From Candidatus Helarchaeota ASGARD archaeon Hel_GB_B (GTDB taxonomy: Archaea; Asgardarchaeota; Lokiarchaeia; Helarchaeales; HEL-GB-B), in NCBI GenBank assembly GCA_005191425.1, contig SUPR01000010.1, positions 1-53,013 of the forward strand: a stretch of 53,013 nt of DNA, in the 5' to 3' direction. The position numbers were made by a program, and so were the translations under genes. The stretch's first letter is position 1. Every line of letters begins with the position of its first letter. Below the pieces are notes generated by a model that searched no databases, was not told the DNA's origin, and worked only from the letters and a program-made list of their open reading frames with translations. This document shows, piece after piece, positions 288 to 23,195 of this stretch.

Positions 288-1205
288 TCAAAAATAATTT
301 TTAATAATATTTGTAACGGCCTCTGAAGAAGTAAGAATTGATCTCAATACAAATTTCCGGATTATTTTTTCGGAGGATTTTGAATATTTAATGAAATAAT
401 ATGGTTTGTTATTTAAAGATACGGATTCCATTAAAGCATATCCTTTTTCATTCCAATCTAAGATCATTCTATTCGGTGCGGCTTCATCGTTACTTTCAAT
501 AATATCGATAAATGAAAGAGCTAAATAACTATATATTGATTTAACTATATGATCAGACATCTCATCTTTGCTGTATTCACCAATGATAAACCCGTTTTTT
601 TCTATTAAAAGAATAGCATCGGCATAAACTTTATTCGCCATCTTTGAAAGTTCCATATTTAATTCTCTTGCTTTTCTTGAAATAGTGGCAAGCCCAATAG
701 AAAACGAATTTAAAAGTGATAGTTCATCGTATATTGAAGTTTTAAAGAATCTAACTTGAAAATTCTTCTTTATAGAATTGATTTTGTCTTTAATCTTTTC
801 AACTAGATCGTTTAATTGGCTGATTTCTTGGATCAAATCTTTTTTGTGGAGTAATACAACAATTAATGGATTTTGGTTGACTTTTTCAATTATTTGTAAT
901 ATCGAACTAAGATAATCAATGGCTTCGTCTATTCGCTCGTCACTTAAATCTATTACGAAAAATAATAAGTCTGTATCGTGAAAATCTCTCTCCCTCTGTA
1001 AATATTCATCACGAAATTTCTTCTGCCCACCCATATCCCATTGAGTTATTTGTGTGTCCATACTTAATTGAATTTCAACTCTTTCAATACCCTGTGTGGG
1101 CTTCAACTCATTTAGTCCATATTGCCTTGATTCTAAAAATTTGATTATTGTTGTTTTACCTGCATTATCTAATCCACTATACACAATCTTGATATTATTA
1201 AGCAT
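288..1205 (-). CDS. Arf-like small GTPase with C-terminal roadblock/longin-like domain
   Basis: About 305 residues. The N-terminal 180 residues are a Ras-superfamily GTPase of the Arf/Arl type: G1 loop GLDNAGKT near the start, PTQG in switch I, WDMGGQ as the G3 motif and HKKD where NKxD is usual. An Arf protein is about 180 residues, so 120 extra C-terminal residues are unusual. They begin ADAILLIEKNGFIIGEYSK and look like the first strand pair of a roadblock/LC7 or longin (profilin-like) domain; that domain call is inference from pattern. Such folds bind small GTPases in eukaryotic Rag/Ragulator and vesicle-coat systems. Asgard archaea carry many small GTPases. An upstream GTG at 1217 would add four residues (MEQK); I prefer the ATG at 1205. 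The gene stands alone. Confidence 0.85.
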   Translation of the reverse strand: MLNNIKIVYSGLDNAGKTTIIKFLESRQYGLNELKPTQGIERVEIQLSMDTQITQWDMGGQKKFRDEYLQRERDFHDTDLLFFVIDLSDERIDEAIDYLSSILQIIEKVNQNPLIVVLLHKKDLIQEISQLNDLVEKIKDKINSIKKNFQVRFFKTSIYDELSLLNSFSIGLATISRKARELNMELSKMANKVYADAILLIEKNGFIIGEYSKDEMSDHIVKSIYSYLALSFIDIIESNDEAAPNRMILDWNEKGYALMESVSLNNKPYYFIKYSKSSEKIIRKFVLRSILTSSEAVTNIIKNYF

Positions 1206-1217
1206 TTTTTGTTCCAC

Positions 1218-6217: not shown

Positions 6218-7621
6218 ATGATAGAAATTGAAAAATTAATACCAATTAATATAGGATTACTTGGGCATATTGACCACGGGAAAACAGCATTAGCAAGAGT
6301 ATTAAGTGAAATAATTTCAACGGCTGGATTAGATAAACATAGACAAGCTCAAGAGAGAGGGATTTCAATAGATATTGGTATAACGTCATTTATTTTGGAT
6401 AACAAATATTTAATAACGCTTGTTGATGCTCCAGGACATGCTGATTTAATTAGGAGTGTTGTTGCAGCTTCAAACATAATTGACGGTGCAATAGTCGTAA
6501 TTGCAGCTGATGAAGGACCTAAAATTCAAACAGGAGAGCACTTATTAATCCTTGAAAGTTTCAATGTAAAAAACATTGTCATTGCGTTAAATAAAATAGA
6601 TTTAGTTTCTGATTCAGTAGTTAGTTCTAGAATTAATGAAATTAAGAGAATTTTGAAAAATACAATATTTTCAAATGCACCGATCATTCCAATATCAGCA
6701 AAAACAAAGAAAGGTATAAATGAATTAAAAAAGGAACTATTAAACATAATAAAAGTACCTGAGCGGGATATATCAGGGAATTTTAAGATGCCAATAGACC
6801 ACGCATTTCAAATAAAAGGAGTTGGGACAATTATTACGGGTACAGTTCATAGGGGTATAATTAAGGTTGGTGATACTATTGAAATTATGCCAATAAAGAT
6901 TCAGAGAAAAATCAAATCAATTCAGATTTTTAAAAGGCCGGAAAATAAAGCTATTGCAGGGCAACGAGCCGGGCTTTCTATAATTAAGGCCCCCCCAAAA
7001 GAGATTTTTCGGGGGTATTATGCGAGTAGTCCAGGAAGTCTTACAATATCAGATAAAATTATAATAGAAGGAAAAATTAATAATTTATTTGAAAGGGGTT
7101 TAAAATCAAAATTACAAGTTCATTTAACAATAGGTATGCCAACAGTTTCAGGTATAATTTATCTATTCACTAAATATAATGATAAAAATATTTTAAAAGA
7201 AAAAGTATCTAAAGGTAATAAATTTCTGGCTTTTATAAAATTAAATGAGAAAATTACACTTGAAAAAGATATGCCCGTATTAATTTCAAGGCTTGATATT
7301 CCCCCAACTAAATTAAGGATAGTTGCAAGTGGAAAAGTACTGGAAATTTTGTCAGAAATACCCGAATTTTATAGATTTAAAATAAAAGAAGGTAAAGTTA
7401 GAAATATAGATAGAAAAGAGGGAGTTGTAATAGAGGGAATAAGTTCCAACGTAATTGGTGCACGAACATATATAAATAAAGTTGTAGAAACTGATAATGG
7501 CAAAAAAGGAAAAATAATTAATACATTTGGGTCAAAAGGTTCATTATTAGTTAAATTCGACAAAAAGCCAAATTTAGGTGAAAAAGTATTTTTAAAAAAC
7601 TTAAGGCGGATTAAAATTTGA
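6218..7621 (+). CDS. selB: Selenocysteine-specific translation elongation factor SelB
   Basis: 467 residues. GTPase motifs: GHIDHGKT (16-23), the archaeal/eukaryal SelB signature QERGISIDIGITSF (in place of the EF-Tu effector loop), DAPGH and NKID. Translation domains II and III follow, and a C-terminal domain IV-like part ends near FGSKGSLLVKFDKK. The archaeal/eukaryal type lacks the winged-helix SECIS reader of bacterial SelB. It delivers Sec-tRNA to recoded UGA codons. Start ATG at 6218. The stop is TGA (7619-7621) and overlaps the ATG of spcS by one base, so the pair is very likely translated together. Confidence 0.93.
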   Translation: MIEIEKLIPINIGLLGHIDHGKTALARVLSEIISTAGLDKHRQAQERGISIDIGITSFILDNKYLITLVDAPGHADLIRSVVAASNIIDGAIVVIAADEGPKIQTGEHLLILESFNVKNIVIALNKIDLVSDSVVSSRINEIKRILKNTIFSNAPIIPISAKTKKGINELKKELLNIIKVPERDISGNFKMPIDHAFQIKGVGTIITGTVHRGIIKVGDTIEIMPIKIQRKIKSIQIFKRPENKAIAGQRAGLSIIKAPPKEIFRGYYASSPGSLTISDKIIIEGKINNLFERGLKSKLQVHLTIGMPTVSGIIYLFTKYNDKNILKEKVSKGNKFLAFIKLNEKITLEKDMPVLISRLDIPPTKLRIVASGKVLEILSEIPEFYRFKIKEGKVRNIDRKEGVVIEGISSNVIGARTYINKVVETDNGKKGKIINTFGSKGSLLVKFDKKPNLGEKVFLKNLRRIKI

Positions 7622-8946
7622 TGAATATTGATAAACTTTTAAATAATTTTATACCAAAACACATGAAAGATAGAGGAATAAATGTTTTAAATGCGAATTT
7701 TTTTCCTATTAAAGATTTATTAGAGCATAGAGTAGTCCCAGAAAATAATTGGGATGAAGAAACAATAAAATTCTTTTTTAGAATTCTTTCTCAGATGGAC
7801 ACAGATAAGGACCTAAAAGGTGTTAGGGTTGGAGAAAGAGAGGCGAGGGTAGCTTCTAACTATGTGGGAAGTCTAGCTGCATTTTTTTGTCATGGTATTG
7901 GGCGAGGAGGAAGGATCATAGGTGCGCAGCCAAAAGCGCCGGGCGCCTCAATTCTTCAAAATATAGGAAATAGGTTGGCATTAGATTTTTTAAAGAAATT
8001 GGGAAACCCAGGTCTAAAAGGAGCTATTGTATTACCATTAGCAACTGGGATGTCAATTTCTTTGGCATTAGCCACAATTAGAGATGAAACAAAAAAAACA
8101 GAAATTATTTACCCGAGAGCTGATCATAGGTCGCCATTAAAAGCTATTGAATTTATTGGACTAAAACCAGTAATAATTGAAGGTATTATAAATGATCATG
8201 GTGGCGTGGAAATACCTATTGAAAATATTGAGAATGCTATTACGGATAAGACAGCGGCAATTCTCAGCACAACTTCATTTTTCCCACCACGTGAATGTGA
8301 TAATATAAAAGAAATAGCAAAAATAGCTAAAGCCAATAAAATTGGACACATAATTAATAATGCTTATGGCGCTCAAAATCAATTCTTTATGAAAAAGATC
8401 CAAGGTGCAATCGATGCTGGCAGAGTGGACGCAATAATACAAAGTACCGACAAGAACTTTTTAACACCAGTAGGTGGAGCAATAATCTCATCTCCAGATA
8501 AGGATTTTCTTGACAAAGTTACGGAGAAATATGCCGGTAGAGCATCTGCAGCCCCTATTATTCAATTTGTGGCTGCTGTCTTGAGTTTAGGGTTAAAAAG
8601 ATATTTTAATTTGCAAGAAGAACAAAAGAAGAATAGAATTCTATTGGAAAAAGAATTAAAAATAATAGCCGAAAAATACGGCGAACGCGTCTTGAAAATT
8701 GAAAATCCAATTAGTTGTGCCCTCACAATTAATACCAGAAATGCTAAAACATTTGGTGGAGTATTATATGAGTTAAGAATAACTGGGACAAGAGCAATAG
8801 AAAAAAATTCTAAATGGGGACCGAGTATAGATAATTATCCTGATAGTTATATGTCATTAAGTGCTGCAATAGGTGCTACAGAAGAAGATATACTTAAAGC
8901 ATTTGAACGAATTGATAAAGCATTTCAACAAACGAATAAAAAATAA
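7621..8946 (+). CDS. spcS: O-phosphoseryl-tRNA(Sec):selenocysteinyl-tRNA synthase (SepSecS)
   Basis: About 441 residues. A PLP enzyme that converts phosphoseryl-tRNA-Sec to selenocysteinyl-tRNA-Sec with selenophosphate. Visible marks: the phosphate-binding loop GRGGRIIGAQPKAPGAS near residue 95, the PLP lysine motif STDKNFLTPVGGAII near residue 280, and N-terminal EREARVASNYVGSLAAFFCHG, all typical of SepSecS/SLA-LP proteins. I take the ATG at 7621 (TGATG overlap with selB); a TTG three bases upstream would add one residue. Its presence together with pstK and archaeal-type selB shows the two-step archaeal/eukaryal Sec route. Confidence 0.93.
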   Translation: MNIDKLLNNFIPKHMKDRGINVLNANFFPIKDLLEHRVVPENNWDEETIKFFFRILSQMDTDKDLKGVRVGEREARVASNYVGSLAAFFCHGIGRGGRIIGAQPKAPGASILQNIGNRLALDFLKKLGNPGLKGAIVLPLATGMSISLALATIRDETKKTEIIYPRADHRSPLKAIEFIGLKPVIIEGIINDHGGVEIPIENIENAITDKTAAILSTTSFFPPRECDNIKEIAKIAKANKIGHIINNAYGAQNQFFMKKIQGAIDAGRVDAIIQSTDKNFLTPVGGAIISSPDKDFLDKVTEKYAGRASAAPIIQFVAAVLSLGLKRYFNLQEEQKKNRILLEKELKIIAEKYGERVLKIENPISCALTINTRNAKTFGGVLYELRITGTRAIEKNSKWGPSIDNYPDSYMSLSAAIGATEEDILKAFERIDKAFQQTNKK

Positions 8947-9000
8947 TTGGAAATTAATTGACTCAAATCATTTATTCAAATTAAATTTTATTGTTTAATT

Positions 9001-9984
9001 TTAAATTCCAACTATTTTATCATATTTAAAATCAAAAAGTATTTCTTTATTTCCTTCATACGATAAAATCAATTTTCCTTCTTCAGTTATTTCTCCACAT
9101 TCTTTAGCTATAACCCCTTTATTTCTGAAAATTTTAATGCACTGCTCCACATTTTCTTCTTTTGTAGTTGCAACTATACCAAATCCAGGATAAGCTTTTA
9201 CCCACCGCTCTATTTCAATGCCTTCTGGAATTGGTATGTCCTCAAGATTAATAATTGCACCCTTCTTTGAACTTTCTAATAACATACCCAGAGTCCCAAT
9301 ATTACCAGGATTTGAGATGTCTTTTGCTGCAGTTAATAACTTTTTTTCTGCAATTTCATTCATCGAACTACAAACATTTCGGACATATTCAGACGATTTG
9401 TGAGAAGTAGTGTCCCAAGCGTAAATAAATTTTTCATTAAAATTACCATCCAAGTCCACTGCAAAAATTATCTTATCACCTGGTTCTGCTGTGGACGAAT
9501 AAATTTCGCAACCTTTTTTGACCATTCCTAAAATTGCAACTGCAAGAGAATTTTTATCTTCATTTGGATGTAAATGCCCCCCGACCATAGGTATTTTATA
9601 TTTTTTACACCCTTCCATAATTCCTTTAATAATTTTATTGCCTATCTGATGTGAATTGATCCCTAAATTATTTACCATGACCAATGGAACTCCACCCTTA
9701 CAATAAATATCATTTGCATTGACCAAAACAGAAAAATATCCTGCTAACTCAGGGTCTGCATCTATTAATTTATACCAAATACCATCTAATGCCATTAAAA
9801 AATAATAATTATCTATATTAGGAATTTCAAAAATTGCTGAATCTTCCCCAAATGCTCCTAATATATTCGTTATACCCAAATTTAATGTTTTATTTAATGG
9901 TTTAATGATTGTCCCAACAAGGTTCTTTCTTTTAATTCCATCAAAATTCTTTATTTCATAGATTAATCCTTTTAAATTCACCAT
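9001..9984 (-). CDS. AIR synthase (PurM/SelD superfamily)-related protein
   Basis: 327 residues. GAFGEDSAIFEI (an ATP/Mg loop of GDDxA type), NANDIYCKGGVPLVMV (like the NDi...GG.Pl helix), VGGHLHPNE, and AAKDISNPGNIGTLGMLLES place it in the AIR-synthase/SelD/HypE/ThiL superfamily, closest by eye to the methanogenesis-marker-2 / sll0787-type group. True SelD has a Gly/Lys-rich N-terminal loop with a catalytic Cys or Sec. I do not see that here; the N-terminus is NFDGIKRKNLVGTI. It converges on spcS with 54 nt between. A link to selenium metabolism is possible from position but is only an inference; the substrate is unknown. Confidence 0.75.
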   Translation of the reverse strand: MVNLKGLIYEIKNFDGIKRKNLVGTIIKPLNKTLNLGITNILGAFGEDSAIFEIPNIDNYYFLMALDGIWYKLIDADPELAGYFSVLVNANDIYCKGGVPLVMVNNLGINSHQIGNKIIKGIMEGCKKYKIPMVGGHLHPNEDKNSLAVAILGMVKKGCEIYSSTAEPGDKIIFAVDLDGNFNEKFIYAWDTTSHKSSEYVRNVCSSMNEIAEKKLLTAAKDISNPGNIGTLGMLLESSKKGAIINLEDIPIPEGIEIERWVKAYPGFGIVATTKEENVEQCIKIFRNKGVIAKECGEITEEGKLILSYEGNKEILFDFKYDKIVGI

Positions 9985-10090
9985 TCATTCACTTTAGCTA
10001 TTAAATCATTCATTATAAAGAATTTATAAGATAAATTTTTAAATTATTAAAGGTAAAATCATTTATTTTTATATTTTTATCAATTGAAAA

Positions 10091-10125
10091 TTAATTAACA
10101 AATTAATTAACAAAAATTTATAAAA
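10091..10125 (+). promoter_or_regulatory. guaB promoter: tandem palindromic repeat plus TATA box
   Basis: The 12-nt unit TTAATTAACAAA occurs twice in perfect tandem (10091-10102 and 10103-10114), each containing the 8-bp palindrome TTAATTAA. A TATA box, TTTATAAAA, follows at 10117-10125. Its centre is about 25 nt before the guaB ATG (10146), so transcription should start at or next to the ATG (leaderless mRNA). The repeat sits where archaeal activators or BRE-blocking repressors bind. The operator role is inferred. Confidence 0.5.
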
Positions 10126-10145
10126 TTAAAATTAGTGAATAATAA

Positions 10146-11609
10146 ATGACTTCGAAAAAATTCAGTGATAAATTAAAAGATAAAACTATTACCTTAACTT
10201 TTAATGATGTTATTTTACTTCCGGGATGGACTCGAATAGAGCCAAACGAAGCAGATTTAACCACATATATTGGCCATATTCGTCTTAATTTACCTTTTAT
10301 ATCTTCGCCAATGGATACGGTTACAGAAAGCGATATGGCAATTTCATTGGCTCGAGAGGGTGGAATAGGTATAATACACAGAAACTGCTCAATTGACTAT
10401 CAAGTTGAAATGGTAAAAAAAGTAAAACGCGCTGAATCTTTTGTAATAACTGATGTAAAGACTATTTCAAAAGATATCAAAATTAAAGACGCAATCAAAA
10501 TTATGAAGACATATGGAATTAATGGACTTCCAGTTATTACTGAAGATAGAAAATTGATCGGTATTTTAACCGGTCGTGATGTGCGTTTTGCAAACCCTGA
10601 AATGAAAGTAGAAGATATTATGACAAAAGATATTATTTATGCAGAAGAAAGTATAAAGGAAGATGAAGCTAAAAAAATCCTACATAAATATAGAATTGAA
10701 AAACTTCCTGTTGTTAATAAAAATAAAGAATTGACAGGCTTAATTACATATAAAGATTTAATGTTAAAAGAAAATTTCCCTAATTCTTCAAGAGATGAAG
10801 ATGGAAAATTATTATGTGGAGCTGCAATATCGCCTACTGATATAGAACGAGCAAAAAAACTTGATGAGTGGGTTGATTTATTAGTTGTTGATGTAAGTCA
10901 TTTTTATAATAAAAATTTATTTGACGCAACTAAAAAGTTGTTAAAAACTATTAGCACACCCCTTGTTGTTGGAAGTATTGGGACATACGAATCAGCAATA
11001 GATTGCTTAACAAAATTGGATTCTATTGTAGGTCTGAGATGTGGAATTGGTAGTGGGTCGATATGTAGTACCGCTGTAGTCACAAGAGCTGGAAGCCCCA
11101 CATTATATGCTACAGCTGTTGCAGCTGATGCAGTAAAAGAAGTAGGGGCAAATGTCTCAGTAATTGCAGATGGCGGTGTAAAGAATCCAGGCGACATCGC
11201 ATTAGCCCTGGCTGTCGGCGCTAGTGCAGTAATGATGGGAAACATATTTGCTGGTACTAAAGAAAGCCCTGGAAGATTGATCAGTATTCAAGGAAGATAT
11301 TATAAAACATATTGGGGTATGGGGTCTGAAGCAGCAAGACAAAAAAGATATTCTCTTGATAGATATTCGCAACCTTCTAAAAATATCGCGGAAGGTGTTG
11401 AGGGCTATGTCCCTTTTAAAGGTAAAGTTAAGGATATTGTGGACGAATTGATAGGTGGTCTGAAAGCCTCAATGGGTTATGTAGGGGCTGCTACAATAAA
11501 AGAAATGTGGGAAAAAGCTAAACTCGCAGGAGTCTCATTTGTAGGGGCTAAAGAAATAATGCCACATGATATATTCCTTCCAGGTGGACCAGATCAAAAA
11601 ACAGAATAA
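10146..11609 (+). CDS. guaB: Inosine-5'-monophosphate dehydrogenase
   Basis: 487 residues, full length. Oxidises IMP to XMP with NAD+, the committed step of GMP synthesis. ISSPMDTVTES near residue 57 is the standard N-terminal motif. Two CBS domains occupy about residues 95-210 and are usual regulatory nucleotide-binding modules. The catalytic cysteine loop GIGSGSICSTAVV, the phosphate loop IADGGVKNPGDIALAL, and the flap MGSEAARQKR with EGVEGYVPFKG are all present. VVDVSHFYN stands where many homologues have VDxAHGH. Start ATG with a TATA box about 25 nt upstream. Confidence 0.93.
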   Translation: MTSKKFSDKLKDKTITLTFNDVILLPGWTRIEPNEADLTTYIGHIRLNLPFISSPMDTVTESDMAISLAREGGIGIIHRNCSIDYQVEMVKKVKRAESFVITDVKTISKDIKIKDAIKIMKTYGINGLPVITEDRKLIGILTGRDVRFANPEMKVEDIMTKDIIYAEESIKEDEAKKILHKYRIEKLPVVNKNKELTGLITYKDLMLKENFPNSSRDEDGKLLCGAAISPTDIERAKKLDEWVDLLVVDVSHFYNKNLFDATKKLLKTISTPLVVGSIGTYESAIDCLTKLDSIVGLRCGIGSGSICSTAVVTRAGSPTLYATAVAADAVKEVGANVSVIADGGVKNPGDIALALAVGASAVMMGNIFAGTKESPGRLISIQGRYYKTYWGMGSEAARQKRYSLDRYSQPSKNIAEGVEGYVPFKGKVKDIVDELIGGLKASMGYVGAATIKEMWEKAKLAGVSFVGAKEIMPHDIFLPGGPDQKTE

Positions 11610-11652
11610 TTTTTTATAAATAATACCAATTATTAACATTTTGAACCGAAAA

Positions 11653-12213
11653 ATGAACAATAATTTAATTAGATATATTACATCCAGGATTAAAAATTCA
11701 AAATTTAAATGTAAAAATTGTGGTCTTTGTTGCAAAACCTCTGAAATAATGCTATCTGCAAGAGAAATCGGTGGTATTTCTTATGCATTAAATATTGAAA
11801 AAGAGGAATTCATTAAAAAATTCCTTGAATTAAAAAAAATTCATAAAACTAAAATAATAGAAAATCGTATTTATGAAATATCTGGAGAATGTTATGTTAT
11901 AAAAAAGAATAATAACGGAGATTGCCCTTTTTATATTGAAAAAGATAATAAGTCTTATTGTAATATTTATGAATATAGACCAATTGTTTGTAGATTGTTT
12001 CCATTCACTTGGGAATATTTTCCTGATACCAATTCTATTAACATTGATTATTCTGAAAACGGATGGAATAATTGTCAAGGAATTGAAAAAAATAAACAAT
12101 CGAATTGGGATGATATTAGAGATATTGTAACGGGAAATGTTATACTTTCAATGATTCAGTCCAATGAATTACAGATGAATGGAAAATTAACTCAAAAATT
12201 AAAAATTAATTAA
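11653..12213 (+). CDS. YkgJ-type cysteine-cluster (Zn/Fe-chelating) protein
   Basis: About 186 residues. The pattern FKCKNCGLCCKTSEI at about residues 20-34, then CPFYIEKDNKSYCNIYEYRPIVCRLFPF, is that of the YkgJ / CxxCxxCC family (UPF0153), in which the cysteines are thought to bind zinc or an Fe-S cluster. Biochemical role unknown. I choose the ATG at 11653; a TTG at 11641 is in frame. About 40 nt downstream of guaB on the same strand, so possibly in the same transcript. Confidence 0.75.
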   Translation: MNNNLIRYITSRIKNSKFKCKNCGLCCKTSEIMLSAREIGGISYALNIEKEEFIKKFLELKKIHKTKIIENRIYEISGECYVIKKNNNGDCPFYIEKDNKSYCNIYEYRPIVCRLFPFTWEYFPDTNSINIDYSENGWNNCQGIEKNKQSNWDDIRDIVTGNVILSMIQSNELQMNGKLTQKLKIN

Positions 12214-12737
12214 ACAATTTATTAAAAAATAAAATTAGAAAATCAAATCTTTTTTATATTTTTTTTAGAATATTTTAAATCCAGAATAAATATTTTTTGT
12301 GATTTTTTAGAAATTGAATTTAAAGTAAAAAACGGAAAAATTGTATATTTTAACTTTCTTTATTGAAAAATGGTTAAAAATTAAATAATAAAACTTTTTG
12401 AATAATTAGAAAAAACAGAACTAAATTTTGACTTCTTTTTTCACCATAATTTTCTTGTATATTATTGAGGGTACATTTGTTCTCTCTTAAATTCTATAAC
12501 AACCTATAAAAATATTTAGATAGAGCGCGATTTTTTTTGTTAACGAACTATTTTTTGGACTTTAGATTTACTTGACTTTGGTCTCTAAAAACGATCTTAA
12601 TTTTCTCATATAACATTGTCAACTTAAATGAGATAATAAGATATAAATAAGATTAGAGAGATAGAAATGAAAAATCAATTTTTTTAGGGGGCCATTTTTT
12701 TGTAATAAATTGATAAGGATAATAAAATTAAAAAAAA
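12214..12737. other. Intergenic stretch without recognisable gene
   Basis: About 520 nt of AT-rich sequence upstream of the transporter pseudogene. The frames are full of stops. No structured RNA was noticed. It probably holds the terminator of the guaB unit and the promoter of the transporter gene, but no single site can be defended. Confidence 0.4.
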
Positions 12738-14507
12738 ATGACAAAAAATAATGAAAATATAAAAAGGGAAAAGAAAAAAAGACCTGGGCTATTTGATTTT
12801 GGTAAGCGACCGCGAAAATATATTTGGGCACTATCAATATTTGCATCAATGATAAATTTTTTCGATGGGTGGGCGACAAGCGTGATTTTATTGGCATTAC
12901 CTATAGACCAGAAATATGAAGCTGCGGAAGAGCAAACTATTTATGATTGGTTTGGATTTTCGCCTGAAAGTTTTCAAGTGGCTTTAATATTTGTAATTGG
13001 TGGACTTGGGATAGTTTCAAGTATAATTTTTAAATATTTAGCTGATAGATATGGACGTAGACCTTTATATCTAATTACTGCAACCGGTTTTATCTTTTTT
13101 ACAGTTATTACACCTTTCATTCCTGCTGGTTATGACTACTTTCCATTATTTTTACTTGTTAGATTTTTCGCAGAATTATTCTTAGCTGCTGATCTTGTTG
13201 TTGTAATTATGACCGAAGAAGCACCAGATCAAGAAAGAGGTAGACTTGTTGGAATTACAATTTCTATGAACTTTATAGGATTAGCTATGGTAGCTATCGC
13301 CCATCAGATGGGTAATATTTTTCCGATGTTATTTAAAAATAGCTGGCAATCTTTATTTTTTCTACCAGTAGTTGGATTTTTCTTTATAATTCCAATATAT
13401 TTTAAAATGAAGGAAACAAATCGATTTCTTAAAATGAAGAAATATTTGCAATGGAAGAGGAGAAAAGGGTTAAAACTTAAAAAAACAAGCTGGTTTACCC
13501 CACTAAAAAAAGAGTATTCAAGGGTATTTATGTTATGTGTGATTCCGGGTATTTGTATAACTATGTTAATGATGGTTGTATTACAATGGATGCCTTTATT
13601 CTTGGTGAATGAGCTTTTAATAGAAAACTGGGAAGTTATGATCATTCCTTTTTCTATTGTCGCATTTTTCTCGTTTTTCATTGTAACATATTTAATGGAC
13701 AAATGGGACCGCAGACAGCTGGCGATAAGAGGCTCATTAATAATGTTTATAGGCGATCTATTAGTAGCAACACCTGCACCATTCTGCCATCCTCCTCAAG
13801 GGTTGACTTTTGAAGAATATTATCTTATAAATCCAGAACTTTGCAATTTAATTTTGACACTGAGGCCATACTTAATACCACTAATAATTGCAGGTTTCTC
13901 CATTGGTGCAATTGGTGGGCCTTTAACATTAAGTGGAATTACATTGATGCCAATGGAAATGATACCTACACATATTCTTAGCACTGCACAAGGATAGTGG
14001 AATTCTTTTATTAAGTTAGCTACTATTTTATCGCCAATATTAACATTTTATGGTGCAGTTCAAATTGGTAGGACTAGTCCAGGGTCATATGGTGGTCTGA
14101 CTTTTGCTTGGTCTTATTTTGGTATCGGTATTTTTTTAGTAGCTGCAACTTTTTCAATCATTTATTTAGCTCCAGAAAGTGGAACAGCTCGTGGAAAAAT
14201 TATTGAAGAAATAATTTATGCTACAAGTCAAAAAAAATCCTTAAAAAGAGAGAGAAGCCGAAAATATGAATATTTTACTGTTATAATGAGTTTCATCATA
14301 TTTTTCTCATTAACATTTTTATATGGTCTATTTCTTGTGCCTAATTATTTCGGTTTTGATCCATTTTATCCATAACTTCAAGTCTTGGGGATATATGGGG
14401 GTATTGCAATTGCATTAATGATCCTCGTTATCTGGTCAAGAGAAAAATGGATTGGTGTTAAAGATTTTAAGAAAGATGGTGATGAAAACAAATCGACCAA
14501 AAAATGA
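12738..14507 (+). pseudogene. MFS transporter with in-frame TAG and TAA stops
   Basis: One reading frame of 590 codons encodes a major facilitator superfamily protein. There are about 12 hydrophobic segments and the loop motif ADRYGRRPL near residue 107. It is interrupted by TAG at 13995-13997 (after HILSTAQG; it resumes WNSFIKLATILSP) and by TAA at 14373-14375 (after FGFDPFYP; it resumes LQVLGIYGGIAIAL), ending at TGA 14505-14507. The frame is never lost and the sequence after both stops is clearly transporter-like (GTARGKIIEEI, further membrane helices). So it is a very young pseudogene, a gene with sequencing errors, or one read through at stops. The first 419 residues alone would lack the last membrane helices. 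Substrate unknown. Confidence 0.85.
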
Positions 14508-14936
14508 AGGTAAAGCTCGTCTCAATAAATATACAGGAATTCATTTCAAAATTAACCCATTTTTTAATTTTATCGAGTCATAAGATCTACGAAATCAATT
14601 AAAATTAAAAGGAATAACTGATATCGAATCTATATCATCGAATATATTATTTATATTAGCTAATTTATTTTGAATAACTAAAATACTAAAAAATATATTA
14701 TATTAAATTATTTAATAGAAAATCTTTTCAATTTTATATCAAATATTCATTTTTTTTAATTAAAAACTAAAATTCTATCATAAAAATAAAAATTTTATAA
14801 CATTATTTATTTTTTAACTTCCTATTTGATTTTAAGTCCCTTAAAATTTGATAAAAAACTCATTTACAAGAAATTTATATATTTTTAATTATTTTAAAAA
14901 TTATAATAGATTTTAATAAGATTATAAATTTAATAT
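14508..14936. other. AT-rich spacer upstream of tRNA-Sec, with probable TATA box
   Basis: No protein gene seen. TTTATATAT at 14874-14882 is the best TATA box for the tRNA gene. It would place the transcription start near 14903 and give a 5' leader of roughly 34 nt to be removed by RNase P. A second TATA-like string (about 14923-14929) is too close to the mature 5' end to serve. Confidence 0.4.
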
Positions 14937-14953
14937 GGCGTTCTGTAGCAGTG

Positions 14954-14999
14954 GCTATAGCTGTATAAGTTTATTTGAACTTATATCGCATAGCTGTAA
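14954..14999 (+). other. tRNA-Sec intron 1 (D-arm), 46 nt
   Basis: Bulge-helix-bulge signal: exon GCAG (14948-14951) pairs with intron CTGT (14994-14997, one G-U). The 5' bulge is TGG (14952-14954) and the 3' bulge AAG (14998-15000). The intron continues as a long hairpin: CTAT/ATAG next to the bulge, then TATAAGTT with AACTTATA closing the apical loop. Cutting between the second and third bulge bases gives this interval; because both flanking bases are G, a one-base shift gives the same product. The outer exonic helix is weak, so this is a relaxed motif. Confidence 0.8.
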
Positions 15000-15023
15000 G
15001 TGGTCCACGGCACCGGACTTCAA

Positions 15024-15047
15024 TATTATAAAAATTATAATGGAGAT
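15024..15047 (+). other. tRNA-Sec intron 2 (anticodon loop, position 37/38), 24 nt
   Basis: A textbook bulge-helix-bulge. The outer helix is the anticodon stem CCGGA/TCCGG. The central helix is CTTC (15018-15021) with GGAG (15042-15045). The 5' bulge is AAT (15022-15024), the 3' bulge ATA (15046-15048), and the intron helix is ATTATA with TATAAT (15036-15041). Cleavage after the second bulge base on each side leaves the loop CTTCAAA. Position 37/38 is the canonical archaeal intron site. Confidence 0.88.
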
Positions 15048-15081
15048 ATCCGGTATACTCGATAAGAGTATGGAGTTCGAT

Positions 15082-15108
15082 ATGAAAATTGGTTAATTTT
15101 CACGAAAT
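15082..15108 (+). other. tRNA-Sec intron 3 (T-loop), 27 nt
   Basis: The outer helix is the T stem GGAG (15072-15075)/CTCC (15110-15113). The central helix is TTCG (15076-15079) with CGAA (15103-15106). The 5' bulge is ATA (15080-15082) and the 3' bulge ATT (15107-15109). The intron hairpin is TGAAAATT/AATTTTCA with a 4-nt loop. Cutting after the second bulge base gives the mature loop TTCGATT, a normal T-loop. Confidence 0.87.
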
Positions 15109-15191
15109 TCTCCCAGAACGCCGCCAACTTTATTTTATTATTTAAAATTATTTTATTATTTATGAAATTATTATCAATTCTTTTTTCAATA

Positions 15192-15714
15192 TTAAAAAAA
15201 AATTCTTTTGAATTTAAATTCAGATAAAAATTTGTTTCTAATTTTAATTTTTTCATAATTAGCATGTATCCTATCAAATTTAATTTCTAACTTATAAGGA
15301 TATTCAAATTTTTCTAGAACGATAGGTATAATTTTAAAATTTTCGTTCGTATTTTTTTTAATCTAAAGCACTTTTTAATTCTTTTTCAATACTACGATTT
15401 TCTTCTACGGTAAACCCTGATAAAAATACTATAAAAATTGAACAAGTATCTTATATTTCCGAGATCATTTTATTCCATATATCTCCTATGCTAATTCCTT
15501 CGTCAAACCGTATTCTAACTCCTTTATCATTTAAAGTTTTTATAACACGACAAACTAAATCAACACCTTTATGGGAATTACTTACAAAAATAAACGATTC
15601 GCAACCATCAAATGACGTGAAAAGTGGATGCGTTTTTTTAATATCCAACCATTTTTTTTGGTAATCATTTTTTTTTCTATCAACTCCAAAAGTAATACCG
15701 ACAGCCCTTTCCAT
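15192..15714 (-). pseudogene. Decayed TIR-domain protein gene
   Basis: The reading starts at ATG 15714 (MERAVGITFG...) and reaches FIFVSNSHKGVDLVCRVIKT, then GVRIRFDEGISIGDIWNKMI. This matches the TIR pattern vFiSYshkD...v..l...G..vw.Deg...G..w...I. It is broken by TAA after ISEI (15451-15453). The same frame goes on with DTCSIFIVFLSGFTVEENRS and IEKELKSALD, the next TIR strand and helix, then meets a second TAA. After a frame change the expected strand KIIPIVLEKFEYPYKLEI follows, to a TAA at 15192-15194. Two stops and a frameshift mean the gene is dead. TIR domains act as NAD-consuming or signalling modules, often in defence. It abuts the HEPN-MNT pair, divergently. Confidence 0.75.
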
Positions 15715-15841
15715 ATTGATTCCTCCCTTAATAATTATTTAAATTGAAATTAACATAATAATTTATTTAAAAAAATTATATATAGTGTTATTATTTAAAA
15801 TAATTAATAAAAAGACTCAAAAATTCAAATATTTTTTAGAA

Positions 15842-16228
15842 ATGAATCGCTCACAAGATTGGATAGAAGAAGCAAGAAGAGAATTAGAAGCTGCTAAAGA
15901 TTTATATAATACAAATCATAATGCTTGGGCCTGTTTTACTTGTCATCAAGTAGTAGAGAAATCTTTAAAGGGAATTTTAGAGATTTTTAAAAATTCGATT
16001 TTTGGGCATAATTTAGTTAATTTAATAAAAAATGTAAAAAAATTTGTGAATGTTCCTAAAAAAATAGAAGATGCGTGTTTTATCTTAAATAGATATTATA
16101 TTCCAACAAGATATCCAGATGCATATCCATCAGGTGTTCCGGCTGAAATGTATAATGATAGTGATGCATCTCAAGCACTAAAATTAGCTGAGGAGGTTTA
16201 TAACTTTGCTCGAAGATTTGCAAAATAG
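15842..16228 (+). CDS. HEPN-domain protein (toxin of HEPN-MNT pair)
   Basis: About 128 residues from the ATG at 15842 (MNRSQDWIEEARRELEAAKD). AWACFTCHQVVEKSLKGIL is the conserved second helix of HEPN proteins, and RYYIPTRYPDAYPSGVP the typical late motif of the archaeal subgroup paired with MNT. A clear RNase RxxxxxH motif is not obvious. An in-frame GTG at 15785 would fall inside the TATA-like TTATATATAG (15776-15785), so it is rejected as the start. Overlaps the MNT gene by 23 nt. HEPN proteins of this type act as toxins that the nucleotidyltransferase neutralises by modification. Confidence 0.85.
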   Translation: MNRSQDWIEEARRELEAAKDLYNTNHNAWACFTCHQVVEKSLKGILEIFKNSIFGHNLVNLIKNVKKFVNVPKKIEDACFILNRYYIPTRYPDAYPSGVPAEMYNDSDASQALKLAEEVYNFARRFAK

Positions 16229-16637
16229 AAAGAACTATTCAAGTTTAAAAAATTACGTGGAAAGTGTTTTAAAAAATAAAAAAAATGTTATTTCAATAAT
16301 TTTATTCGGATCACAAGCAAAAGGAACGTATTCATATAATTCTGACTTTGATTTATTCATAATAATTGAGAATGAGCCAACAAGATTTATAGATAGATTA
16401 TTAGAATTTGGAAGATACTCAGATGGACTGGTAGAGCCTTTAATTTACACGAGAGATGAAGTTGAATATATGGCTAACACATATCATACGATGGTACTTG
16501 AAGTTTGCGCAGATGGAATTATATTATACGATAAAAATCAATTTTGGGTCAATAAATGTAAAAAAATAAAGAGTTTAATTGATAAAAAGATAATTAAGAG
16601 AATTAAAAATGGCTGGGACTTGCGATTATTAGACTAA
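16206..16637 (+). CDS. Minimal nucleotidyltransferase (MNT, antitoxin of HEPN-MNT pair)
   Basis: About 143 residues. IILFGSQAKGTYSYNSDFDLFIII contains the GSx10DxD nucleotidyltransferase motif of the DNA polymerase beta superfamily. The small size and the overlap with a HEPN gene define the HEPN-MNT toxin-antitoxin arrangement. In characterised members the MNT enzyme transfers AMP to the HEPN toxin. Start codon TTG (16206, with another TTG at 16218); no ATG is available before the motif. Confidence 0.85.
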   Translation: MLEDLQNRKNYSSLKNYVESVLKNKKNVISIILFGSQAKGTYSYNSDFDLFIIIENEPTRFIDRLLEFGRYSDGLVEPLIYTRDEVEYMANTYHTMVLEVCADGIILYDKNQFWVNKCKKIKSLIDKKIIKRIKNGWDLRLLD

Positions 16638-22430: not shown

Positions 22431-23195
22431 ATGCGAAATTTAATCATTTTTATGGGAATACCATCATCTGGAAAAACTACATTAGCAAATTTATTAGCAA
22501 AAAGGATTGAATTAAAATTTAACAAAAAAACAATGGTAATTGGGTCAGATCAAATAAGAAAAATGATCCCAATTTTGTCAGAGAAATTTTTACCCGATAG
22601 AGAAGAAATGGTGAGGACTCTAACACTTAAATTTATAGATTATGCTTTAGATTATAATGATGTTGTTATAAATGATGATATGAATTATTATAAATCAATG
22701 AGACATGATTTTTATAAAATTGCCTTAAAAAAGAACTGTAACTTTTTTCTAATAATGTTTAAAATAGATTTAGAACGCGCATTAGAATGGAATATTAAAC
22801 GAGGTATTCCTATACCCCAAGAATTAATAAAAAATGTATCAAAAAAATTCGACCCCCCTAGTGATTATTTGTGGGATCGCCCAATATTTGTAGTAAATAA
22901 TCGCGGCGAAAATCTCGAAGAAAATGTAGATAAAATACTCACGCTTCTTCAAGATAAATTAGACATTAATTTAATTGAAAAAAATAAAAAAATTAAAAAT
23001 ACACCAGGAAAGTCCGAATATTATGATAAATTGACAAGAAAAATAGTTTCTGAACTAATCCAAAAACCTGAATTTATTGATAAAAGAGAAAATATATTAA
23101 ATTTACGGAAATCTATATTAATAGAATCAATAGATAAAGATTTTGATGAACAAAAAATTAGGACTTTATTTATTAAAAAAATCAATGAACTATAA
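22431..23195 (+). CDS. pstK: L-seryl-tRNA(Sec) kinase (PSTK)
   Basis: 254 residues, the usual archaeal length. P-loop GIPSSGKTT at 9-17. INDDMNYYKSMRHDFYKIA carries the DxxxYYxSMR motif typical of PSTK, and KKFDPPSDYLWDRP the conserved KFDPP. It phosphorylates Ser-tRNA-Sec to phosphoseryl-tRNA-Sec, the substrate of SepSecS. The C-terminal about 90 residues are the helical tRNA-binding part. The TATA box about 28 nt upstream of the ATG suggests a leaderless message. Converges with a nucleotidyltransferase gene with 3 nt between stops. Confidence 0.9.
   Translation: MRNLIIFMGIPSSGKTTLANLLAKRIELKFNKKTMVIGSDQIRKMIPILSEKFLPDREEMVRTLTLKFIDYALDYNDVVINDDMNYYKSMRHDFYKIALKKNCNFFLIMFKIDLERALEWNIKRGIPIPQELIKNVSKKFDPPSDYLWDRPIFVVNNRGENLEENVDKILTLLQDKLDINLIEKNKKIKNTPGKSEYYDKLTRKIVSELIQKPEFIDKRENILNLRKSILIESIDKDFDEQKIRTLFIKKINEL

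What the first reader, a model, noticed from the sequence alone, without database searches (positions are those of the whole stretch)
14937..15126. tRNA-Sec gene interrupted by three bulge-helix-bulge introns
Seen directly: acceptor 9 bp, D-loop TGGT, TCA anticodon, long variable arm, 4-bp T stem, G73 and CCA, all only after removing three inserts of 46, 24 and 27 nt. Each insert independently shows a 4-bp helix flanked by two 3-nt bulges with cuts that restore standard loops (CTTCAAA, TTCGATT). One tRNA with introns in D-arm, anticodon loop and T-loop is rare; for tRNA-Sec I know of no standard example with three. A scanner tuned for normal tRNAs would miss it.
Basis: partly seen in the sequence, partly recalled or inferred. 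Interest (0 to 1): 0.95.

Follow-up and report, generated by a model that had tools for sequence, protein, structure and literature searches.

The report
Selenocysteine tRNA gene with three introns
In an uncultured Asgard archaeon the gene for the selenocysteine tRNA is broken by three short inserts, each carrying the archaeal splice motif and predicted to be cut out before the tRNA can work, so the standard tRNA scanners tried here miss the gene.

Summary
At 14937-15126 (+) inserts of 46, 24 and 27 nt interrupt a tRNA-Sec. Without them a 93-nt RNA remains: 9-bp acceptor, 7-position D-stem, UCA anticodon, 6-bp variable arm, 4-bp T-stem, G73, encoded CCA; 30 of 31 pairs are standard. ARAGORN misses the intact gene and calls tRNA-SeC once all three inserts are gone. 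A covariance model built without the window finds this place and no other at E <= 0.01 in the genome. The contig also carries SelB, SepSecS and a PSTK-like gene; the genome has a SelD with in-frame TGA and two splicing-endonuclease subunits. Relatives have introns at the same three sites. It is not the only three-intron tRNA-Sec: of 96 parsed Asgard genes (and the window), 42 have none, 16 one, 32 two and 6 three. Its set of sites (D-stem 17/18, 37/38, T-loop) occurs only here among those 96. In print I saw only a single T-arm intron for archaeal tRNA-Sec, plus multiple introns in other Asgard tRNAs. Splicing is predicted, not shown. New variant of a known kind.

The parts
14937..15126 (+). 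tRNA-Sec gene, unspliced, with encoded CCA
   Evidence: only R1 match at E <= 0.01 in the genome, as 14987-15123
14937..14953 (+). exon 1: acceptor 5' half, TA, first six D-stem bases
14954..14999 (+). intron 1 (46 nt), D-stem, mature position 17/18; helix 14948-14951 with 14994-14997
   Evidence: 25 other distinct exon-intron pairs of relatives parse to the same site
15000..15023 (+). exon 2: last 5' D-stem base, D-loop TGGT, D-stem 3' side, anticodon stem 5' side, anticodon TCA (15020-15022), position 37
15024..15047 (+). intron 2 (24 nt), anticodon loop 37/38; helix CTTC 15018-15021 with GGAG 15042-15045
15048..15081 (+). exon 3: anticodon stem 3' side, 6-bp variable arm, T-stem 5' side, TTCGAT
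15082..15108 (+). intron 3 (27 nt), T-loop; helix TTCG 15076-15079 with CGAA 15103-15106
15109..15126 (+). exon 4: last T-loop base, T-stem 3' side, acceptor 3' half, G73, CCA (15124-15126)
6218..7621 (+). archaeal SelB (EF-Sec)
   Evidence: TIGR00475 278.1 bits (cut-off 242.25); PF21440 aSelB_III
7618..8946 (+). SepSecS (selenocysteine synthase)
   Evidence: TIGR03531 482 bits (cut-off 224.85); PF05889
9001..9984 (-). AIR-synthase-like protein (methanogenesis marker 2 type), found beside tRNA-Sec in several relatives
   Evidence: TIGR03267 361.7 bits, just under its cut-off of 365; neighbours
22431..23195 (+). PSTK-like kinase (tentative)
   Evidence: PF08433 115 bits, over cut-off; TIGR03574 156.7 bits, under its cut-off of 290.5

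Best explanation
This is the one tRNA-Sec gene found in the genome of a likely Helarchaeales archaeon (Asgard), interrupted at three places (D-stem 17/18, anticodon loop 37/38, T-loop) by inserts with bulge-helix-bulge motifs, predicted to be introns that the genome's two-subunit splicing endonuclease would remove. The exons form a standard archaeal 9/4 tRNA-Sec; this is shown by sequence, alignment and covariation. The inferred pathway is: transcription as a 190-nt precursor; cleavage at the six bulge sites by an alpha2-beta2 EndA (catalytic alpha with the conserved His, beta without it); ligation of the exons (RtcB is recalled and was not searched); serylation, phosphorylation by PSTK, conversion by SepSecS, and delivery by SelB to UGA codons such as that of SelD. 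The anticodon-loop and T-loop motifs have both outer helices. The D-arm motif has almost no outer helix, which is the relaxed HBh' form reported for archaea with alpha2-beta2 enzymes.
For: ARAGORN: nothing unspliced, tRNA-SeC(tca) with all three inserts removed; removing D alone, T alone, D+anticodon or anticodon+T gives none; with introns allowed, removing D+T gives it too, with a 24-nt intron (anticodon insert alone not tested). R1, trained without the window, gives one match in the window (30.1 bits, E 6.9e-5) and that place alone at E <= 0.01 in the genome. In an 18-row alignment 96.8% of cells pair and 26 of 31 pairs change on both sides; 0 of 500 shuffles reach this and slid controls pair 36-53%. 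Against same-order G080 the product is 74 of 90 identical with 5 compensatory double changes. The exon-insert helix is 4 of 4 in 22 of 26 D-arm introns (shuffles 2.6%), 14 of 14 anticodon introns (0.7%) and 17 of 33 T-loop introns (2.6%), window included. SelB, SepSecS and a PSTK-like gene on this contig; SelD with in-frame TGA. Two EndA subunits. Exons 54.8% G+C, introns 23.7%.
Against: No RNA evidence. By eye the D-arm motif has only about two weak outer pairs (A14947-T15001, T14946-G15002), and the product keeps an A.G at D-stem pair 3; but G082, whose tRNA-Sec has no D-arm intron, has the same A.G, and 5 of 18 aligned genes, window included, lack a standard pair there. R1 placed its 5' end in intron 1 (14987) with a gapped, mispaired acceptor, so it supports the anticodon and T-loop inserts, not the D-arm one; with filters off it also misplaced the 3' end. 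No search here scored the spliced sequence with Rfam or tRNAscan-SE models. The gene lies about 6 kb from SepSecS, unlike at least 64 of 87 relatives. PSTK is under its equivalog cut-off. SelD runs off its contig. In this register 16 of 33 T-loop introns have 3 of 4 helix pairs, and of 26 D-arm introns two have 3 and two have none.
Confidence: 0.93

Rival explanations
1. The locus is a decaying relic of tRNA-Sec, and the inserts are debris that is not spliced.
For: The gene is not in the place beside SepSecS that it has in many relatives, and D-stem pair 3 is A.G.
Against: 30 of 31 pairs are standard, with 5 compensatory double changes against G080 and 8 against G082. It is the only copy found, in a genome with SelB, SepSecS and a SelD carrying an in-frame TGA. 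All three inserts carry splice motifs in register.
Confidence: 0.03
2. Only the anticodon and T-loop inserts are spliced as stated; the D-arm cut lies elsewhere, for example leaving a 5-bp D-stem with a 9-nt loop.
For: The D-arm motif lacks a real outer helix, the chosen cut leaves an A.G pair, and R1 did not recognise exon 1.
Against: The same cut in the same register gives a full 4-bp helix in 22 of 26 D-arm introns, window included. The parsed intronless relatives have 17 bases before GTGGTC; they were chosen by a pattern with GTGGTC, so the D-loop match itself is partly circular, and G085 has GCGGTC there. G082 has the same A.G with no D-arm intron. The 9-bp acceptor needs exon 1.
Confidence: 0.04
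3. Assembly artefact: the inserts or the locus come from a chimeric metagenome contig.
For: The genome is a draft in 182 contigs with 4.93% estimated contamination.
Against: Each insert sits at a site used in relatives and has its own splice motif. The gene shares its contig with SelB and SepSecS, whose best matches among the loci compared are in same-order genomes.
Confidence: 0.02

Closest known systems
Lokiarchaeota tRNA-Sec with one T-arm intron (Mariotti et al. 2016, not held; seen as cited in passages of PMC9499178 and PMC5330540)
   Same: T-arm intron in an archaeal 9/4 tRNA-Sec with 7-bp D-stem; 31 nt there, 27 nt here and 29-32 nt in the f6 and f26 relatives
   Different: One intron there, three here; [quoted passage not shown]
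Multi-intron tRNAs of Atabeyarchaeia and Freyarchaeia (PMC11291895, passages read)
   Same: Asgard tRNAs with several introns at non-canonical positions, in genomes inferred to use Sec
   Different: The passages give no intron count for tRNA-Sec; its Supplementary Data 4 could not be opened, so a three-intron tRNA-Sec may already be listed there
Archaeal tRNAs with up to three BHB introns, such as those of Pyrobaculum (PMC8450103, PMC4090602, passages read)
   Same: Up to three introns per tRNA, relaxed motifs, alpha2-beta2 endonuclease
   Different: The passages concern ordinary tRNAs, not tRNA-Sec
Daphnia pulex tRNA-Sec genes, each with an intron one base 3' of the anticodon (PMC5330540, passages read)
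   Same: Intron at 37/38 in tRNA-Sec
   Different: Eukaryote, one intron per gene

Membership tests
archaeal tRNA-Sec | 9-bp acceptor and 4-bp T-stem | tested here: met
archaeal tRNA-Sec | 7-bp D-stem with 4-nt loop | tested here: met
   7 positions, TGGT loop; 6 standard pairs and one A.G
archaeal tRNA-Sec | UCA anticodon | tested here: met
   15020-15022; ARAGORN tca
archaeal tRNA-Sec | G73 | tested here: met
   15123, invariant in alignment A1
archaeal tRNA-Sec | long variable arm | tested here: met
   6 bp, 5-nt loop
archaeal tRNA-Sec | Sec synthesis and insertion genes in the genome | tested here: met
   SelB, SepSecS, SelD over cut-off; PSTK-like under the equivalog cut-off
archaeal tRNA-Sec | spliced sequence over the RF01852 gathering score | not testable with these tools
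   Rfam search takes only window or locus DNA; the unspliced gene gives no hit
archaeal BHB intron | 4-bp helix between two 3-nt bulges; cutting in the bulges restores the tRNA | tested here: met
   all three inserts
archaeal BHB intron | outer helices on both sides (strict hBHBh') | tested here: inconclusive
   met for the anticodon and T-loop inserts; the D-arm insert has about two weak outer pairs, i.e. HBh' (by eye; inner helices)
archaeal BHB intron | cleavage by EndA | not testable with these tools
   two EndA-like genes present; no RNA data
alpha2-beta2 splicing endonuclease | catalytic alpha plus beta lacking the catalytic His | tested here: met
   192-aa alpha aligns to 3p1z with its His; 198-aa beta has Ala at the His column of 1a79; which columns are catalytic is recalled, and assembly was not tested

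The most novel reading that the evidence does not exclude
Asgard archaea broke their selenocysteine tRNA into three introns more than once: (D-stem, 37/38, T-loop) here, (D-loop, 37/38, T-loop) in family f19, and (D-loop, variable arm, T-loop) in families f8 and f23. UGA decoding as selenocysteine in these lineages therefore depends on six endonuclease cuts per tRNA, and ordinary tRNA scans hide Sec use in them.
Probability: 0.5. Interest if true: 0.68.

Novelty: new variant of a known kind. Interest (0 to 1): 0.55.

Why it matters
[quoted passage not shown] Here 54 of 96 parsed Asgard tRNA-Sec genes carry at least one intron, 38 at least two and 6 three, at five sites (and the window; the 96 are those fetched and parsed, not a random sample). 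Scans can therefore undercount Sec users: RF01852 did not list the window gene in its own genome at E <= 10, and ARAGORN found none of the seven unspliced genes. It also gives a testable case of a recoding tRNA whose function would depend on several splicing steps, in the archaea thought nearest to eukaryotes.

Tried and rejected
Mariotti 2016 (PMC4989117): not held, so it is cited only through other papers. RF01852 and RF00005 do not list the window gene. R1 over 227 genomes with stricter filters also missed it (G000 no match), so multi-intron genes in other genomes are probably undercounted. R1 with filters off on 14500-15600 again found the gene as best hit but with both ends misplaced (14982-15085). 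ARAGORN's tRNA-Pyl call in the genome (L166) looks by eye like tRNA-Gln(CTG) with a 37/38 intron; not pursued. The uniqueness of the three-intron gene, which I held, was withdrawn.

Rows dropped before counts: of 84 distinct parses, one (L062, G046, score 14.6) is taken as a chance match and was dropped. Core loci L080, L091, L102, L132 and L147 are cut by contig ends and were not counted (L102 and L132 show a D-arm intron, L091 a T-loop intron); L148 did not parse though it looks intronless. Fetched loci L060, L061, L063, L064 and L079 gave no parse and were taken as chance; several other pattern hits were not fetched. Most f28 genes were not fetched for parsing; their over-cut-off RF01852 matches are 87-88 nt, so intronless by length. 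G084, G085, G217 and G218 have R1 matches of 88-89 nt and were not counted. Lesser matches were not examined.

Papers: PMC5330540, PMC11227280, PMC9499178, PMC11291895, PMC9723677, PMC8450103, PMC8762117, PMC13188914, PMC4090602 and PMC12397907 were seen as search passages only, none whole. Searches for prior reports were made, in an open-access library without bioRxiv; supplements could not be opened.

Full report
THE OBSERVATION. Four exons (14937-14953, 15000-15023, 15048-15081, 15109-15126) are separated by inserts of 46, 24 and 27 nt. Joined, they give a 93-nt sequence: GGCGTTCTG/CAGAACGCC acceptor, a 7-position D-stem with TGGT loop, anticodon loop CTTCAAA, a 6-bp variable arm, GGAG/CTCC T-stem with TTCGATT loop, then G and CCA. 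Of 31 pairs, 30 are standard; the exception is A.G at the third D-stem pair. Standard scanners miss the unspliced gene: ARAGORN finds no tRNA in the window, Rfam finds nothing at gathering scores, and RF01852 on the whole genome does not list the place at E <= 10.

MORE THAN CHANCE. With the 24-nt core and TTCGA held fixed and the flanks shuffled, 0 of 1500 shuffles reached the real score of 24.5 (maximum 17.9; 626 gave no parse). The precursor folds with z -7.0. Among the combinations tested, ARAGORN calls tRNA-SeC(tca) only when all three inserts are gone, or when D and T are gone and an intron is allowed, in which case it reports the 24-nt intron at the anticodon. A profile HMM of 15 relatives scores 63.2 bits spliced against 32.1 unspliced; the best of 200 shuffles scores 2.8. 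Covariance model R1, made without the window, finds one place in the window (14987-15123, E 6.9e-5), and that place is its only match at E <= 0.01 in the genome, with 150 of 233 candidates scored. R1 spans the anticodon and T-loop inserts but puts its 5' end inside intron 1, so exon 1 rests on the 9-bp acceptor pairing, the parse and the comparison with relatives, not on R1.

SPLICE MOTIFS. Each insert has a 4-bp helix between the last exon bases and the end of the insert, and a 3-nt bulge at each cut: GCAG/CTGT in the D-arm, CTTC/GGAG at 37/38, TTCG/CGAA in the T-loop. Inner helices of 4, 7 and 9 pairs follow by the script's count. The outer helices are the anticodon stem and the T-stem for inserts 2 and 3. 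By eye insert 1 has only about two weak outer pairs, which is the relaxed form. PMC4090602 (passages) says that hBH and HBh' sites occur in archaea with alpha2-beta2 endonucleases and that these enzymes are lenient.

THE ENDONUCLEASE. The genome has two tRNA_int_endo genes. The 192-aa protein matches the splicing endonuclease 3p1z at 147.8 bits, keeps its His, and aligns without a gap through the KP..DF stretch. I recall that stretch as the Crenarchaea-specific loop; PMC12397907 (passages) links such loops to broad substrate specificity. The 198-aa protein has Ala at the His column of 1a79. The identity of catalytic columns is recalled. This fits an alpha2-beta2 enzyme, but assembly and activity are inferred.

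SELENOCYSTEINE CONTEXT. The same contig encodes SelB (6218-7621) and SepSecS (7618-8946), both over their cut-offs, and a PSTK-like kinase (22431-23195) that is over the Pfam KTI12 cut-off but under the PSTK equivalog cut-off. A partial SelD, over its cut-off, has an in-frame TGA in HG-TGA-SCK and is open to the end of its contig. So the genome very likely uses Sec.

WHICH ORGANISM. 

RELATIVES. The pattern GTGGTC-N10-GRCTTCAR matches in 121 of 227 phylum genomes, once in the window's own; read backwards as a control it matches in 9 of 227. From the fetched loci I parsed 88 genes in 87 other genomes: 42 have no intron, 16 one (8 D-stem, 4 anticodon, 4 T-loop), 30 two (21 D+T, 9 anticodon+T), and none three. 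D-stem and anticodon introns never occur together in these 88, whereas the window has both. Within the window's order, G080 and G081 have none and G082 has one at 37/38. The exon-insert helix is 4 of 4 in 22 of 26 distinct D-arm introns, 14 of 14 anticodon introns and 17 of 33 T-loop introns, window included, against 2.6%, 0.7% and 2.6% in shuffles. All 16 remaining T-loop introns have 3 of 4 pairs; of the four remaining D-arm introns two have 3 and two (L105, L106, both from G121) have none in this register. On an 18-row alignment, 96.8% of cells pair and 26 of 31 pairs show changes on both sides, with 0 of 500 shuffles as high. The window's product shares 74 of 90 positions with G080, with 5 double compensatory changes, and has 8 against G082. 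This argues against a pseudogene.

NOT THE ONLY THREE-INTRON tRNA-Sec. R1 over the phylum, then on fetched loci, shows seven genes with inserts in other families. G073, G074 and G075 (f19) have D-loop, 37/38 and T-loop introns. G001 (f8) and G165 (f23) have D-loop, variable-arm and T-loop introns. G077 and G079 (f20) have D-loop and T-loop introns. All seven are called tRNA-SeC by ARAGORN after splicing and none before; their motif helices are 4 of 4 in 18 of 19 introns, the exception being 3 of 4. With the window this makes 96 genes: 42 with none, 16 with one, 32 with two, 6 with three. R1 at E <= 0.01 on 40 selected genomes of other families gave, beyond these seven, nothing better than E 2.0e-5 (G163, 75 nt; not examined). 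Because R1 missed the window in the 227-genome run, the multi-intron counts are lower bounds. The set here (D-stem 17/18, 37/38, T-loop) is found in no other of the 96.

POSITION. In 64 of 87 genomes with a parsed gene, SepSecS lies in the fetched locus; those loci are only about 0.4 to 3 kb, so this is a lower bound. In G080 and G081 the order is SelB, SepSecS, tRNA-Sec, AIRS gene. In the window the AIRS gene follows SepSecS by 54 nt on the opposite strand, and the tRNA lies about 6 kb downstream. So the gene has probably moved, or the block was rearranged; mechanism unknown.

COMPARISON WITH PRINT. PMC9499178 (passages) calls the Lokiarchaeota T-arm intron of 31 nt the only archaeal case in tRNA-Sec. 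PMC5330540 (passages) says that single case was the only one reported, and adds Daphnia. PMC9723677 (passages) mentions unusual insertions and deletions in some Lokiarchaeia tRNA-Sec; the word intron does not occur in it. PMC11291895 (passages) reports that 92-95% of tRNA genes have introns in its Atabeyarchaeia and Freyarchaeia genomes, over half with multiple introns, in genomes inferred to use Sec; its supplementary table may include tRNA-Sec and could not be opened. The listings showed me no report of a three-intron tRNA-Sec; I opened only the papers named in Tried and rejected.

VERDICT. The gene is a real, very likely functional tRNA-Sec with three introns (0.93). Splicing and function are inferred. 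It is a new variant of a known kind: intron-bearing tRNA-Sec crossed with multi-intron archaeal tRNA. The wider pattern, several Asgard lineages with multi-intron tRNA-Sec at five sites, is the more interesting result.

Noticed in passing
L199-L203 (G001, G073, G074, G075, G165): Five further three-intron tRNA-Sec genes in other Asgard families, two of them with an intron in the variable arm.
   Followed up: partly
window 8946-14937: tRNA-Sec lies about 6 kb from SepSecS and the AIRS gene is inverted, whereas in 64 of 87 genomes with a parsed gene SepSecS is within the fetched locus.
   Followed up: partly
window 9001-9984 and loci L008, L019, L208-L214: An AIR-synthase-like gene (methanogenesis marker 2 type; weaker SelD-model match) lies beside or near tRNA-Sec in families f2, f3, f8, f19, f20 and f23; a role in Sec metabolism is unexplored.
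   Followed up: no
G000 whole genome: Rfam tRNA finds only 16 matches at E <= 0.001 (15 over cut-off) in a 93.7% complete genome, against 23 in G080, 37 in G081 and 28 in G082, though G107 also has 16; its tRNAs are probably intron-rich in general.
   Followed up: partly
L105 and L106 (G121): Two tRNA-Sec copies in one genome, both with a 32-nt D-arm insert whose splice helix does not fit the usual register.
   Followed up: no
window 14957-14965 and 14990-14998: The D-arm intron holds the 9-mer ATAGCTGTA twice, 33 nt apart; it is 12-17 nt longer than the other D-arm introns parsed at this site (29-34 nt), so it may have grown by duplication.
   Followed up: no
window 15785-16637: Two overlapping genes beside tRNA-Sec; the second has a Polbeta/NTP_transf_2 domain, so the pair looks like a HEPN-nucleotidyltransferase pair (HEPN is recalled; the first gene had no NCBIfam hit and was not run against Pfam).
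   Followed up: no
window 288-1217: Gtr1/RagA-type small GTPase (PF04670).
   Followed up: no
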